NCBI GenBank assembly: GCA_027623325.1
Contig: JAQBXY010000006.1
Location: 62,001-126,000, forward strand
Direction of reading: 5' to 3'
From: Gemmatimonadota bacterium
Lineage (GTDB): Bacteria; Gemmatimonadota; Gemmatimonadetes; Longimicrobiales; Gaopeijiaceae
DNA: 64,000 bases
This document shows positions 27,745 to 33,651 of the stretch, piece after piece. Made by a program: the position numbers and the translations under genes. Below the pieces are notes generated by a model. It saw only the letters and a list, made by a program, of their open reading frames with translations. It made no database searches and was not told where the DNA came from. Position 1 is the first letter of the stretch. Every line of letters starts with the position of its first letter.

Positions 27745-30700
27745 ATGATTCCGAAGGGTGGGGGGAGAAGGTTGGCGCGGGGGGCGGGGCTTTTCAAGCT
27801 CGGCAGCGTGGTGCGCGGCGTAGTCGGCGCTTGCGGCTGTGCGCTCATCCTCTCTCCTTCGGCGGCCTGGGCGCAGGCGCCGGACGAGGCCTGGCGAACG
27901 ATTTCCACCGAACACTTCCGCGTGACCTTCCCCGCGCGCCTGGAATCGTTGGGTCGGAAGGCGGCCGACCGAGCGGAGCATGCTTGGACAGAGCTGTCCG
28001 ACTTCTTCATCGAGCCACCCCGCGATGTCATTGACGTGGTGGTGACGGACCACACCGACGTGTCGAACGGCTTCGCGCAGGTCACGCCTTCCAATCGCAT
28101 CACGATCTTTGCCCGCCCGCCCGCCGATGCGCTCTCGCTAGGGCACATGGACGAATGGATGGACCTCGTCATCACGCACGAACTCGCGCACATCGTTCAC
28201 CTCGATCCGGTCCGGAATCCTATCGGACGGGTCGCGCGCGGGGTGTTCGGCCGCATCTCGTCGGAATGGCCCTTCTTTCCCGGCTTGGGCACGCCACGCT
28301 GGATCCGCGAAGGTCTCGCTACCTGGTACGAGTCACGACTTAGCCAGGCGGGCAGGGTGCGGGGAACGTTCAACGAGATGCAACTCCGGACGGCGGTGCT
28401 CGAGGGTCGCTTCGAGAATATCGGCCAGGCCGCGGGGGAGTCGCCGCTATGGCCGGGGGGGAACCGCCCCTACGCATACGGCTCGCTCTTCTTTGACTTC
28501 CTGCTGGAACGCCACGGGGAGGATCGCATGGGAGCCCTCGTCGAGGCGATCGCGGGTCAGTGGATTCCCTATCGGCTCGATGCGGCCGGAGAGAGTGCGC
28601 TAGGTGTGTCGTTGTCGTCCGAGTGGCGCGCCTGGGAGGCGCAGCTCGAACTCGAACTGACCGATCTGGATGCGCGCCTTGCTGAGCGAGGCCCGGTGTC
28701 GGAGCCGGAGCAATTGACGTCAGGAGCGCGTTGGGGGCTGCACCCCAGAGTGTCTCCTGACGGCCGTTGGTTGGTCTACACACGCTCGGACGGCCGTTCC
28801 GATCTCCAGTTGCACCTTCGAGAGCTTGGCACCGGCCTGGTCCGGCCCCTGGGCCGAACGAACGGACTCAGCACGTTCGATTGGCTTCCGGATGGACGCC
28901 TTTTGGTTGCGCAGCTGGAGCTGGAGGATCCGTATCGGACGTATAGCGATCTCTACATCTTCGACCTGACCGGTGGTCAGCATCGGTTGACCCGGAGCGC
29001 GCGCCTGACGCAGCCCTCGGTTTCGCCCATGGGCGAGCACGCCGTGGCCGTTCAAGAAGGCGACGGCACGAATTCCCTCGTCAGGGTCGATCTCGAGACG
29101 GGGGTGGTAACGGTTCTCGTCGCGTCGGATCCGAACGTTCATTGGGCCTTTCCGAGTCACTCCCCCGACGGACGATGGATCGCGGCGACGCGGTGGCTCC
29201 CCGATGCCCACCACGATGTTGTGATCCTGGACGGGCGGAGCGGCGCACTGGTGGATCAGGTTACGGATGACCGCGCCCTCGATATGGGTCCGATGTGGAG
29301 CGCGGATGGGCGCTGGCTCGTGTGGGCATCGGACCGTAGTGGGATCCTCAACATCCTCGGGGCCGGTGTCGATGGCGCGACGGGTGCCGCTGCGGCGCCG
29401 GTCATGTTGACTAACGTGCGGACCGGGGCCGCGTATCCCTCCGTCGATCCGTCCGGGTCGTGGCTCTACTTCAGCGGGTATCACGTAGACGGTTGGGAGG
29501 TCGAACGGATCCCCTTCGAACCGGACGCAGGAGCCGGCGCAGTCCGCGCCGTCGCTCGCTTCGATGCCGCGCTTCCGCCCACGGTGCGGGGAGCTTCCAC
29601 GGCTCCGGTCGAAGACTACTCGCCCCTGCCAACGCTGGCGCCGACCTACTGGGAAATCTCGTCGCGGTCGGCCGTTGCCACGCCAGCGATCTCGCGGACG
29701 GACGAGGATCTATTCCTGCGGAGGAGGGAGCTGCTCGGCTTCGCGCTCGGTGCCCAGACCTCCGGACGGGATCTTGTGGGCCGCCACTCCTATTCGGCGG
29801 CGGCACGTGTCTTCACATCGGGCGGGAAGGCGGAGGGTGGGGCTTCCTACGCGTTCTTCGGTCTCGCGAACCCGATCCTATCGCTATCGGTGCGGCAACG
29901 GTACGACGGCGACGGGCAACAGGTTCAGGGACCGGCTCTCGACACTTTGCTGACGCTCGAACGCGAGCGGGGGATCGACGGGGCGGTCACCTTCAGCGCC
30001 CCGACGTGGAGACGCAACGTCGCGGTCACGGTAACCGGCGGGTTGGTCTGGGAGCACAGGGAATTGCTCGGGAACGACTTGATGCCGTCGACCTTGTATG
30101 CCCTCGCGCGACCCAACAGCCGTCTGTCCAATTTCAGTGTCGCCGCCAACTACAATTCATCGCGGTCCCATTCGTTTCAAATGGGCACGGCGCGAGGCAT
30201 CAACGCCTTCATCCAGGGCCGGATGCGTACCGAATTGAGTCTTCCCGACTCATTGAACGGAGTCGCGGGAGCGGATCGGTCGGTCCATGAAGTGATCGGG
30301 CGGCTGCGCGGCTCGATTCCTCTCGGAGGAGGTGGCCGAGCTGCCCACATCCTCGCGCTTCAAGCGAGCGGCGGAGTGGCGTCGGGACCCGGTGGCGGTG
30401 CGCTTCACTATCGGGTAGGGGGTGCATCGGGCAGCAGGGAGGACCTCACGGGCCTGGATCTGTTTGGTGGTGATTTCATTTTCTTCCCTGTCCGCGGCTA
30501 CGAGACCTCCAGCCGCTTCGGGCGATACGCGTGGAGTGCTTCCGCGGAGTATCGCATTCCGCTCTGGCTCATCAATCGGGGCCTGCGGGCGTGGCCGATC
30601 CATCTGGATCGGGCCATGGGCACGCTCTTCCTGGACGCCGGGAACGCGTGGGGCCCCGATGTAACACCCACTGGCTTTCCCAACACGCTCCAGCTCGCGC

Positions 30701-30840
30701 TCGCGTCGGTCGGTGCCGAGATAACGACTGAGTTCCTGGGCCTGTACAACGTCGAGGTCCGTCTACGCACGGGTGTTGCCGTCCCTCTGGTCCAAAGCGA
30801 TGGGGTTCGCGGTTATGTGAGGGTCGGGCTGCCGTTCTGA
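27745..30840 (+). CDS. Peptidase-MA-like metalloprotease + PD40/TolB-type propeller + C-terminal outer-membrane barrel
   Basis: ITHELAHIVHLDP (HExxH) with downstream EGLATWYES; propeller repeats (SPDGRWLVYTRSDGRSDL, SPDGRWIAATRW, SADGRWLVWASDRSG); barrel end ...RTGVAVPLVQSDGVRGYVRVGLPF. Confidence 0.82.
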   Translation: MIPKGGGRRLARGAGLFKLGSVVRGVVGACGCALILSPSAAWAQAPDEAWRTISTEHFRVTFPARLESLGRKAADRAEHAWTELSDFFIEPPRDVIDVVVTDHTDVSNGFAQVTPSNRITIFARPPADALSLGHMDEWMDLVITHELAHIVHLDPVRNPIGRVARGVFGRISSEWPFFPGLGTPRWIREGLATWYESRLSQAGRVRGTFNEMQLRTAVLEGRFENIGQAAGESPLWPGGNRPYAYGSLFFDFLLERHGEDRMGALVEAIAGQWIPYRLDAAGESALGVSLSSEWRAWEAQLELELTDLDARLAERGPVSEPEQLTSGARWGLHPRVSPDGRWLVYTRSDGRSDLQLHLRELGTGLVRPLGRTNGLSTFDWLPDGRLLVAQLELEDPYRTYSDLYIFDLTGGQHRLTRSARLTQPSVSPMGEHAVAVQEGDGTNSLVRVDLETGVVTVLVASDPNVHWAFPSHSPDGRWIAATRWLPDAHHDVVILDGRSGALVDQVTDDRALDMGPMWSADGRWLVWASDRSGILNILGAGVDGATGAAAAPVMLTNVRTGAAYPSVDPSGSWLYFSGYHVDGWEVERIPFEPDAGAGAVRAVARFDAALPPTVRGASTAPVEDYSPLPTLAPTYWEISSRSAVATPAISRTDEDLFLRRRELLGFALGAQTSGRDLVGRHSYSAAARVFTSGGKAEGGASYAFFGLANPILSLSVRQRYDGDGQQVQGPALDTLLTLERERGIDGAVTFSAPTWRRNVAVTVTGGLVWEHRELLGNDLMPSTLYALARPNSRLSNFSVAANYNSSRSHSFQMGTARGINAFIQGRMRTELSLPDSLNGVAGADRSVHEVIGRLRGSIPLGGGGRAAHILALQASGGVASGPGGGALHYRVGGASGSREDLTGLDLFGGDFIFFPVRGYETSSRFGRYAWSASAEYRIPLWLINRGLRAWPIHLDRAMGTLFLDAGNAWGPDVTPTGFPNTLQLALASVGAEITTEFLGLYNVEVRLRTGVAVPLVQSDGVRGYVRVGLPF

Positions 30841-30928
30841 GGGCCTGTTTTCGAGACGTCTGACCCCTTGCCGGCGACGGCACGATCACCGAAGATAACC
30901 CGAAGATAGCGCTGCGAAGCGGGATTTC

Positions 30929-30946
30929 GCGACAAACATTTGTCGC
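30929..30946. promoter_or_regulatory. 18-bp palindromic operator-like site
   Basis: GCGACAAA-CA-TTTGTCGC, 8+8 bp perfect dyad, ending 14 bp upstream of the -35 hexamer. Confidence 0.55.
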
Positions 30947-30960
30947 CCGTCTCGGCAAGC

Positions 30961-30989
30961 TTGACCCCAAGATATTGGGTCCGTACAAT
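30961..30989 (+). promoter_or_regulatory. Predicted sigma70-type promoter of nrdJ with embedded NrdR-like box
   Basis: TTGACC-17 bp-TACAAT; spacer holds CAAGATATTG (30968-30977), 9/10 to the NrdR core CwAtATaTwG. Confidence 0.6.
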
Positions 30990-31024
30990 GCCTTTGCCCA
31001 ACATCTGGTAGGTGCCTGAGGGGG

Positions 31025-31033
31025 TTATCCACA
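31025..31033 (+). promoter_or_regulatory. DnaA box TTATCCACA
   Basis: Exact consensus 9-mer; further DnaA-box-like sites at 31089-31097 (TTTTCCACC) and 31101-31109 (TTTTCCACA). Confidence 0.55.
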
Positions 31034-31043
31034 GGTGAATCGC

Positions 31044-31070
31044 CGGCGGGAGTGCGCTCCCGCCGTTTTT
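31044..31070 (+). terminator. Intrinsic terminator in nrdJ 5' leader
   Basis: CGGCGGGAG-TGCG-CTCCCGCCG followed by TTTTT. Confidence 0.8.
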
Positions 31071-31125
31071 CAACTCCTAGATCCGGCGTTTTCCACCCGC
31101 TTTTCCACACGGAGCAAGAGTCGAG

Positions 31126-33651
31126 ATGACGCGCGTTCACCAGCCCCGCCCCCGTAGAGAGTCGATCATTTTCGACGATGTTCTCCCCGATGACCTTCCC
31201 CGGGCGGAGTTGACCGAAAACGCTCGCATCGTCCTCGGCAAGCGGTACCTGAAGAAGGATGCCGAGGGTATGCCCACGGAAGATCCGGAAGTCATGTTCT
31301 GGCGCGTGGGGCGCACCATCGCAGCGGTCGACGGAGACTACGGAGCCTCGGAGTCTGCGGTCGACGAGGTCGCGCGGCAGTTCTATGACCTCATGATCAA
31401 CGGCACGTTCGAGCCGAATTCGCCGACGTTGATGAACGCCGGTCGGCCGCTCGGGCAGCTTTCTGCGTGTTTCGTACTTCCGGTCGATGATGCGCTCTCC
31501 AATGGCCAGAGCGGTATCTACGACACGCTGAAGTCGATGGCACTGGTGCATCAGTCCGGTGGTGGGACCGGCTTCTCCTTCTCGCGTCTCCGGTCCGAGG
31601 GGGAGATGGTTCGCTCGACCATGGGAGTCGCGTCGGGCCCGGTCTCGTTCATGAAACTCTACGACGCAAGCACGGACGTGGTGAAGCAGGGAGGGACGCG
31701 CCGGGGGGCCAATATGGGCATCCTCCGCGTCGATCACCCCGACATCCGCTCTTTCATCGCCTGCAAGAACGACACGAGCCAGGTGACGAACTTCAACATT
31801 TCCGTAGCGATCACCGACGCGTTCATGGCGGCCGTGCAGAATGGCGAGTCCTATGACCTCGTGAATCCGCGAGACCAGGAAGTGGTCGGGCAGGAAGACG
31901 CGCGTGAGATCTTCGACATGATCATTCATGGTGCCTGGCTCACGGGTGAGCCCGGTACCTTCTTCATCGATCGCGCCAACGAGTACAATCCGGTTCCGGC
32001 GCTCGGTAGCTACGAGGCTACGAATCCGTGCGGCGAGCAGCCGCTGTTGCCCTACGACGTTTGCAATCTCGGGAGCATCAACCTCGGCAAGTTCGTTCGC
32101 GACGAGGCGCGTCCTGGCACCGATCCGGAAGATGGCATCGACTGGGAGGCGCTGCGGCAGGTCGTGCACCTCTCGACGCATTTTCTCGACAACGTGATTG
32201 ATGCGAACGTCTATCCGCTCCAGGAAATTCACGACCTGGCGCAGAATATTCGGCGCATAGGGTTGGGAGTCATGGGATGGGCGGACATGCTGGTCCGTTT
32301 GGGCATCCCGTACGACTCGGAAGAGGGTGTGGCACTCGGACGCCGCGTGATGGAGTTCGTGAACGAGGAGTCGCGCAACGCTTCGGAGAAGCTGGCCGAG
32401 ATCCGGGGTGTCTTCCCCGCGTGGCCGGCGTCGATCTGGGGCCCCGACGGCAAGGCGGCCGTTCAGGAAAGTGGCGAGCGGATCCGACCGGAGCGAAGGC
32501 TGAGGAATTGCAACCTCACGACGGTCGCTCCGACCGGGACGATCTCGATCTTTGCCGGGTGCTCGGGAGGCATCGAGCCTCTCTTCGCCGTAGCGTTCAT
32601 GCGTAACCAGGCCGGCTCCTTGATGCCGGATGTGAACCCCGACTTCGTCCGACTAGCGGAGGAGGGCGGCTGGTACTCCACGGATCTCATGGAGCGGATC
32701 GCGCAGGAAGGGCATATCCATTTCGATGAGGTGCCCGAAGAGGTCCAGCGGACCTTCCGAACCGCCCACGATATCACGCCGGAGTGGCACGTGCGGATGC
32801 AGGCCGGGTTCCAGGAGCACACGGACTCGGCCATCTCCAAGACGACCAACTTCCCACGGGAAGCGACCGAGGCGGACGTACGCGAGATCTACGAACTCGC
32901 GTTCAGCCTGGGGTGCAAGGGCGTGACCGTCTACCGCGACGGGGCTCGGGAGGGCCAAGTGCTTTCCACGGGCGCCACCACGAAGAGTGAGTCGACGGAC
33001 GCTTCGAACGAGCTGTCGCAACTTCAGCACCAGGTCGCGGACGCTCGCGAGGAGGCGCACAACCTGCGCATCGAGATCGAGCGCCTGAAGGCGGAGCTAC
33101 AGGATCAGGACCTCAACGCCGGGGCATCCCGCCACAAGCGCCAACGACCGGCGGCGCTGCGCGGCTACACCATGAAGATGATGTCACCCTTGGGGGACCT
33201 GTACGTCACCATTAACGAGGACATCGGAGGTCGCCCGTTTGAGGTATTCTGCACGCTCGGAAAGGCGGGTGGGGCCGCCAATGCGGACGCCGAGGCGATC
33301 GGACGATTGATGTCGCTGGCTTTACGCTCCGGCATCTCGATCCGACAGGTCAAAGACCAGCTCCGAGGCATCTCCTGCGATCGCGCGGTGGGGTTCGGAC
33401 CGAACAAAGTACTTTCGGCGCCCGATGCGATCGGTCAGGCGATCGAGCGATACCTCGAAGAGAAGGAGGGTGTGCAGGAGGCTCTTCCTCTCATTCTCTC
33501 TGCTACTCAGGGCGGGACGCAAGTTCAGGCGTCGTCCACAGGTTCAGAGTCGTTCGACATGGGAACGTGCCCGGATTGCGGAACTGGCCACCTCGCCTTC
33601 GAGGAAGGGTGCAAGAAGTGCCACGTGTGCGGATACTCGGAATGCGGGTGA
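31126..33651 (+). CDS. nrdJ: Adenosylcobalamin-dependent (class II) ribonucleotide reductase
   Basis: 841 aa; NSPTLMNAGRPLGQLSACFVLPVDD; SGGGTGFSFSRLR; NPCGEQPLLPYDVCNLGSINL; C-terminal CPDCGTGHLAFEEGCKKCHVCGYSECG. Confidence 0.95.
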   Translation: MTRVHQPRPRRESIIFDDVLPDDLPRAELTENARIVLGKRYLKKDAEGMPTEDPEVMFWRVGRTIAAVDGDYGASESAVDEVARQFYDLMINGTFEPNSPTLMNAGRPLGQLSACFVLPVDDALSNGQSGIYDTLKSMALVHQSGGGTGFSFSRLRSEGEMVRSTMGVASGPVSFMKLYDASTDVVKQGGTRRGANMGILRVDHPDIRSFIACKNDTSQVTNFNISVAITDAFMAAVQNGESYDLVNPRDQEVVGQEDAREIFDMIIHGAWLTGEPGTFFIDRANEYNPVPALGSYEATNPCGEQPLLPYDVCNLGSINLGKFVRDEARPGTDPEDGIDWEALRQVVHLSTHFLDNVIDANVYPLQEIHDLAQNIRRIGLGVMGWADMLVRLGIPYDSEEGVALGRRVMEFVNEESRNASEKLAEIRGVFPAWPASIWGPDGKAAVQESGERIRPERRLRNCNLTTVAPTGTISIFAGCSGGIEPLFAVAFMRNQAGSLMPDVNPDFVRLAEEGGWYSTDLMERIAQEGHIHFDEVPEEVQRTFRTAHDITPEWHVRMQAGFQEHTDSAISKTTNFPREATEADVREIYELAFSLGCKGVTVYRDGAREGQVLSTGATTKSESTDASNELSQLQHQVADAREEAHNLRIEIERLKAELQDQDLNAGASRHKRQRPAALRGYTMKMMSPLGDLYVTINEDIGGRPFEVFCTLGKAGGAANADAEAIGRLMSLALRSGISIRQVKDQLRGISCDRAVGFGPNKVLSAPDAIGQAIERYLEEKEGVQEALPLILSATQGGTQVQASSTGSESFDMGTCPDCGTGHLAFEEGCKKCHVCGYSECG

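What the first reader, a model, noticed from the sequence alone, without database searches (positions are those of the whole stretch)
30961..31011. nrdJ promoter with two NrdR-like boxes 31 bp apart, one filling the -35/-10 spacer
Seen: TTGACC (30961-30966)-17 bp-TACAAT (30984-30989). CAAGATATTG (30968-30977) matches the NrdR core CwAtATaTwG at 9/10; a weaker copy CAACATCTGG (30999-31008) matches 7/10. The cores start exactly 31 bp apart, about three helical turns. Established: NrdR represses ribonucleotide reductase genes through tandem boxes spaced by whole helical turns. Inference: this B12-dependent class II RNR is NrdR-controlled, with the first box inside the promoter spacer and the second over the start site.
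Basis: partly seen in the sequence, partly recalled or inferred. Interest (0 to 1): 0.68.

Follow-up and report, generated by a model that had tools for sequence, protein, structure and literature searches.

The report
NrdR–DnaA control region of nrdJ
The switch region of this bacterium's only detected catalytic gene for making DNA building blocks carries a textbook two-site NrdR repressor operator inside its promoter, followed by binding sites typical of the replication starter DnaA and an RNA stop-signal hairpin before the gene, which suggests that building-block supply is tied both to nucleotide levels and to the replication cycle.

Summary
nrdJ (31126-33651) is the only RNR large-subunit gene found in this Gemmatimonadota genome, and one unlinked nrdR gene is present. 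A matrix trained only on two other families ranks the pair 30964/30995 far above every other pair in 64 kb. A two-core pattern at that spacing occurs once in 3.35 Mb. The arrangement (box 1 in the 17-bp -35/-10 spacer, box 2 31-32 bp downstream) is conserved through the order and in nrdJ of Geobacterales, Nitrospirota and others. On its own this is a new member of a known kind.

Beyond the finding, the 130-bp leader between promoter and ATG holds (i) DnaA boxes: TTATCCACA at 31025, and TTTTCCACC-3 bp-TTTTCCACA at 31089-31109, about 100-fold enriched at nrdJ of this family, helically phased, with the 2-3 bp gap that E. coli DnaA prefers; (ii) an intrinsic-terminator-like hairpin (31044-31070) with G·U pairs, compensatory changes and variable loops, so probably RNA.

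Proposed: NrdR (dATP/ATP) gates initiation, while DnaA and the terminator gate elongation. DnaA control of RNR genes is known (E. coli nrdAB). This layout on a class II RNR leader is, to my knowledge, undescribed. Nothing was tested by experiment.

The parts
30961..30966 (+). -35 hexamer TTGACC
   Evidence: aligned in nearly all relatives with 17-bp spacer
30984..30989 (+). -10 hexamer TACAAT
30964..30981 (+). NrdR box 1 ACCCCAAGATATTGGGTC, fills the -35/-10 spacer
   Evidence: 18.4 bits with matrix trained on other families, best site in 64 kb; conserved
30995..31012 (+). NrdR box 2 TGCCCAACATCTGGTAGG, over the inferred start site
   Evidence: 12.9 bits, 31 bp from box 1; two-core pattern unique in genome
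31025..31033 (+). DnaA box B1 TTATCCACA, about +29 from inferred start
   Evidence: perfect box; one of only 10 TTWTCCACA in 3.35 Mb; fixed 59-62 bp from NrdR box 1 start in nearly all family members that have it
31044..31070 (+). intrinsic-terminator-like hairpin CGGCGGGAG-TGCG-CTCCCGCCG + TTTTT in the nrdJ leader
   Evidence: conserved in 11/11 genus members with leader and several other genera; G.U and compensatory pairs, loops 4-6 nt
31067..31075 (+). weak DnaA-like box B2 TTTTCAACT in the terminator tail; a better box (e.g. TTCTCCACG, TTTTCCACA) at the same place in some hairpin-less relatives
31089..31097 (+). DnaA box B3 TTTTCCACC, first half of double box
   Evidence: 3-bp gap to B4; 2-3 bp gaps in most family members
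31101..31109 (+). DnaA box B4 TTTTCCACA, second half of double box
31111..31114 (+). GGAG, likely ribosome-binding site
   Evidence: read from sequence; GGAG conserved in alignment
31126..33651 (+). nrdJ, adenosylcobalamin-dependent class II ribonucleotide reductase, 841 aa
   Evidence: NF006417 1138 bits (cut-off 961), TIGR02504 694 bits (cut-off 400); only PF02867 match in genome

Best explanation
This is the control region of the genome's only detected ribonucleotide reductase large-subunit gene, nrdJ. Shown by sequence: a sigma-70-type promoter whose spacer is an NrdR box, and a second NrdR box three helical turns downstream over the inferred start; an nrdR gene elsewhere; and a leader with helically phased DnaA boxes (one single, one double) around a terminator-like RNA hairpin. 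Inferred working: when dATP is high, NrdR loaded with dATP and ATP binds both boxes as a tetramer and excludes RNA polymerase. When dATP falls, initiation resumes. DnaA bound to the leader boxes, especially the double box just before the ribosome-binding site, then hinders or stalls RNA polymerase near the hairpin, so that part of the transcripts end at the terminator. nrdJ would thus be lowest when DnaA-ATP has accumulated and relieved once DnaA leaves the boxes after initiation, similar in sign to the repression of E. coli nrdAB by high DnaA-ATP. NrdR control is very likely, DnaA binding likely; the direction of the DnaA effect and the terminator interplay are conjecture.
For: NrdR; spacing rule of 15-16 bp between boxes and the need for two boxes (PMC12051234); boxes overlapping the RNA polymerase site in known cases (PMC9110341, PMC12051234). 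DnaA: TTWTCCACA 3.57 per kb in family nrdJ upstream regions against 0.033 per kb in background, controls near zero; only 10 in the whole genome, 2 of them here, the others mostly inside coding sequence; double boxes with 2-3 bp gaps 26 times against about 0.03 in shuffles, the spacing E. coli DnaA prefers (PMC11317965); the double-box pattern has 11 hits in 34 genomes, 5 of them upstream of nrdJ and one directly after dnaA in the dnaA-dnaN gap; same box type in this genome's dnaA-dnaN gap and a canonical DnaA domain IV; phasing at 10.5-10.8 bp. Hairpin.
Against: No binding, expression or start-site data. Whole-leader folding is not better than shuffles (z -0.14); only the local hairpin stands out. 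The hairpin is limited to part of family f1 and the DnaA boxes are absent in some relatives, so neither is indispensable. E. coli DnaA boxes at nrdA lie upstream of the promoter, here downstream. No antiterminator structure was found. Counts over relatives are not independent of phylogeny.
Confidence: 0.62

Rival explanations
1. Plain NrdR control only. The NrdR boxes work as in other bacteria; the TTTTCCACA repeats and the hairpin have no regulatory role beyond, for example, DnaA titration or mRNA stability.
For: The NrdR architecture is conserved across phyla whereas DnaA boxes and hairpin are lineage-specific.
Against: Box spacing and helical phase are kept across the family, and losses or gains are by about one turn (64-65, 75-77 and 86 bp). 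The hairpin keeps pairing through changes.
Confidence: 0.25
2. The UUUUCCACA repeats act in the leader mRNA, not in DNA: together with the hairpin they form an RNA regulatory element (protein-binding or a new riboswitch-like attenuator).
For: In family f1 the repeats are all in mRNA sense and inside the transcribed leader; the hairpin is RNA-like.
Against: In families f2 and f3 the same boxes often lie upstream of the promoter and on the other strand, so they work as DNA there; the same double box occurs in the dnaA-dnaN gap; no Rfam family; fold z near zero.
Confidence: 0.1
3. The hairpin is simply the terminator of the gene upstream (27745-30840), left inside the nrdJ leader.
For: The upstream gene is on the same strand and ends about 200 bp before it.
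Against: In L100 (the same locus as L049) the nearest upstream gene, about 2258-2630, appears divergent, yet the hairpin is at the same place. A terminator placed after the nrdJ promoter would cut nrdJ transcripts too.
Confidence: 0.08

Closest known systems
Streptomyces coelicolor nrdRJ promoter with NrdR (PMC9110341)
   Same: class II nrdJ under NrdR; two palindromic boxes about three turns apart, overlapping the RNA polymerase site; NrdR contact residues D15, R17, R12, R26-29 and R37 present here
   Different: here nrdR is unlinked to nrdJ and no second box pair was found by the strict pattern, so no sign of autoregulation; here DnaA boxes and a terminator follow
Escherichia coli nrdAB promoter with DnaA double box and NrdR boxes (PMC11317965, PMC8203912, PMC12176259)
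   Same: RNR gene with both NrdR boxes and a tandem DnaA box pair 3 bp apart (TTATCCACAaagTTATGCACT)
   Different: class Ia enzyme; DnaA boxes upstream of the promoter there, in the transcribed leader here; no leader terminator reported in the passages read
Geobacterales and Nitrospirota nrdJ promoters (loci)
   Same: TTGACA-[NrdR box in spacer]-box 2 at 31/32 bp, or 42 bp in several Nitrospirota
   Different: almost no DnaA boxes (0.05 strict boxes per kb) and no leader terminator in nearly all

Membership tests
NrdR operator (NrdR regulon) | two palindromic boxes with conserved C...G in each core | tested here: met
   core C and G present in both boxes
NrdR operator (NrdR regulon) | box centres a whole number of helical turns apart (15-16 bp spacer) | tested here: met
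   31 bp here, 31/32 in relatives; rule from PMC12051234
NrdR operator (NrdR regulon) | nrdR in the genome with Zn ribbon, ATP-cone and DNA-contact residues | tested here: met
   TIGR00244 169.8 bits against cut-off 124.65; PDB NrdR E about 1e-34; D15, R17
NrdR operator (NrdR regulon) | dATP/ATP-dependent binding and repression | not testable with these tools
   needs purified protein
Class II RNR NrdJ | NrdJ family match over curated cut-off | tested here: met
   NF006417 and TIGR02504
DnaA-regulated promoter | consensus DnaA boxes, preferably pairs with 2-3 bp gap | tested here: met
   rule from PMC11317965
DnaA-regulated promoter | DnaA with canonical box-recognition domain IV in the genome | tested here: met
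   PRQVAM and GGRDHSTV read
DnaA-regulated promoter | DnaA binding and change of transcription | not testable with these tools
   needs ChIP or footprint and reporter
Transcription attenuator | intrinsic terminator between promoter and start codon | tested here: met
   (sequence match; termination itself not measured)
Transcription attenuator | alternative antiterminator or other read-through switch | tested here: inconclusive
   no Rfam match; global fold not informative

The most novel reading that the evidence does not exclude
A three-layer switch on a sole class II RNR: NrdR gates initiation from inside the promoter spacer, while a helically phased DnaA array in the transcribed leader works together with an intrinsic terminator, so that the replication initiator controls RNR transcription by roadblock-assisted attenuation instead of at the promoter.
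Probability: 0.3. Interest if true: 0.72.

Novelty: new variant of a known kind. Interest (0 to 1): 0.5.

Why it matters
dNTP supply must match replication. E. coli couples the two through DnaA at nrdAB, but whether this is general, and how it works with NrdR, is little known. An uncultured-rich phylum with apparently one RNR gene, one NrdR operator and a DnaA array in the same 150 bp gives a simple, testable case in which nucleotide sensing (NrdR) and replication timing (DnaA) meet. The comparison also suggests that the 'NrdR box in the -35/-10 spacer' layout of nrdJ is old, being shared with Geobacterales and Nitrospirota.

Tried and rejected
Cobalamin riboswitch or other known RNA in the leader: no Rfam match except a chance CRISPR-repeat hit on the hairpin, E 0.34. 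A third NrdR box at 30929-30946 (GCGACAAACATTTGTCGC): scores -7 with the matrix, 34 bp from box 1, off phase; rejected as an NrdR box though partly conserved. A leader peptide over the hairpin: read by eye in a few relatives; start codon and frame did not look conserved. nrdR autoregulation: no other two-box site by the strict pattern. Box 1 alone as evidence: not significant. Global leader fold: z -0.14. Searches for papers joining Gemmatimonadota, RNR and NrdR found none; papers naming both nrdJ and DnaA were listed but not read one by one.

Full report
OBSERVATION. The bases are as stated. Box 1 alone could be chance: a one-mismatch core is expected 0.38 times in the window. To test the pair without circularity I collected nrdJ upstream regions from 59 relatives (regions; aligned), trained a symmetric 18-bp matrix on two other families of the order (f2 and f3, 23 loci) with the box distance free between 20 and 44, and applied it to family f1 and to the window. 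In f2/f3 the best pair was 31 or 32 bp apart in 22 of 23 loci; in f1 27 of 28. In the window the pair 30964/30995 scores 31.3 bits; non-overlapping pairs score 4.6 or less. A pattern of two cores 31 bp apart occurs once in the whole 3.35-Mb genome, at this place, and the 32-bp version not at all.

NRDR. The genome has one ATP-cone family match, a 165-aa protein that passes NCBIfam TIGR00244 and matches solved NrdR structures. It has, at the same numbers, the residues reported to contact DNA in S. coelicolor NrdR: R12, D15, R17, R26-29 and R37 (PMC9110341, read). nrdJ is the only RNR large-subunit match in the genome. Published rules are met: two boxes, 15-16 bp spacer, three turns between centres, often overlapping the RNA polymerase site (PMC12051234, PMC9110341). 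A named-genome search identifies the relatives as Gemmatimonadota (Longimicrobiales/Gemmatimonadales MAGs) and shows the same layout, TTGACA followed at once by a box in the spacer and a second box at 31/32 bp, upstream of nrdJ in Geobacterales, Nitrospirota, Syntrophobacterales and some actinobacterial MAGs.

DNAA BOXES. Between box 2 and the ATG lie TTATCCACA (31025-31033), TTTTCCACC (31089-31097) and TTTTCCACA (31101-31109). TTWTCCACA occurs only 10 times in the genome; two are here, 76 bp apart, and the others mostly fall inside coding sequence. In 28 f1 upstream regions the strict box occurs 3.57 times per kb against 0.033 in 241 kb of background, with scrambled controls near zero; in other phyla's nrdJ upstream regions it is 0.05 per kb. 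The two last boxes are 3 bp apart. In f1 such pairs with 2-3 bp gaps occur 26 times against about 0.03 expected in shuffled leaders, which is the spacing preferred by E. coli DnaA in vivo, including its nrdA site (PMC11317965). A strict double-box pattern has 11 hits in 34 genomes, of which five are upstream of nrdJ (G000, G005, G014, G041, G045; with coordinates), and one sits directly after the dnaA stop codon in a relative. This genome's dnaA-dnaN gap holds the same kind of boxes, and its DnaA has the usual recognition motifs. Relative to NrdR box 1, the first DnaA box is at +59 to +62 in nearly all f1 members that have it. The first-to-last distance is 75-77 bp in 22 loci, 64-65 in five and 86 in two, that is, changed by about one helical turn; all box distances cluster at a period of 10.5-10.8 bp (R about 0.78). 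In several f2 and f3 genomes the boxes instead lie upstream of the promoter, often on the other strand, which argues for a DNA-level role.

HAIRPIN. CGGCGGGAG-TGCG-CTCCCGCCG followed by TTTTT (31044-31070) is the strongest terminator-like site in 11 kb. It recurs at the same place in all 11 genus members with a leader and in several other genera; scores this high are rare in shuffles (1 of 640 at 11 or more). Pairs are kept through G·U, G-C to A-U and A-U to U-A changes, and loops vary from 4 to 6 nt, which suits RNA and not a protein-bound DNA palindrome. In L100 the nearest upstream gene appears to run the other way, so the hairpin is not simply its terminator. I found no antiterminator.

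MECHANISM. Shown: promoter, operator, boxes, hairpin and genes as sequence features with conservation. Established elsewhere: NrdR represses with dATP plus ATP; DnaA regulates E. coli nrdAB, high DnaA-ATP repressing (PMC8203912). Inferred: NrdR gates initiation here; DnaA binds the leader; DnaA near the terminator lowers elongation. The last step is the least certain.

KNOWN OR NEW. Each element has precedent; the combination on a class II RNR, with the DnaA array downstream of the promoter around a terminator, was not found in the papers searched, which cover open-access papers only. I class it as a new variant of a known kind.

Noticed in passing
window 30889-30909: Direct repeat CCGAAGATAA/CCGAAGATAG, 11 bp apart, upstream of the nrdJ promoter, conserved in much of the genus. 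CCGAAnATAnnCCGAA occurs 4 times in the genome and a few times per relative while the reversed control has none; it often precedes a small conserved gene (MTDIVYTANIRIDRIKGPYRHAWIPAHEGPVEFG...) and is usually followed by TGCAA. Possibly a regulon or promoter element.
   Followed up: partly
window 30929-30946: Near-perfect palindrome GCGACAAACATTTGTCGC; ACAAACATnTG conserved in 7 of 11 genus members 28 bp upstream of the -35; not an NrdR box by matrix.
   Followed up: partly
L122, L134, L136, L149, L152, L120 (Nitrospirota MAGs): Best NrdR box pair upstream of nrdJ is 42 bp apart (four helical turns), like the long spacers described in Streptococcus (PMC12051234).
   Followed up: no
G028, G030 (L100), G037, G050, G052, G056: nrdJ open frames of 1056-1381 aa broken near residue 303 of the query; L100 reads as an intein inserted after ATNPC.
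   Followed up: no
L085 and L101: MAGs labelled Gammaproteobacteria and Deltaproteobacteria carry nrdJ 74% identical to this Gemmatimonadota one; labels are probably wrong.
   Followed up: no
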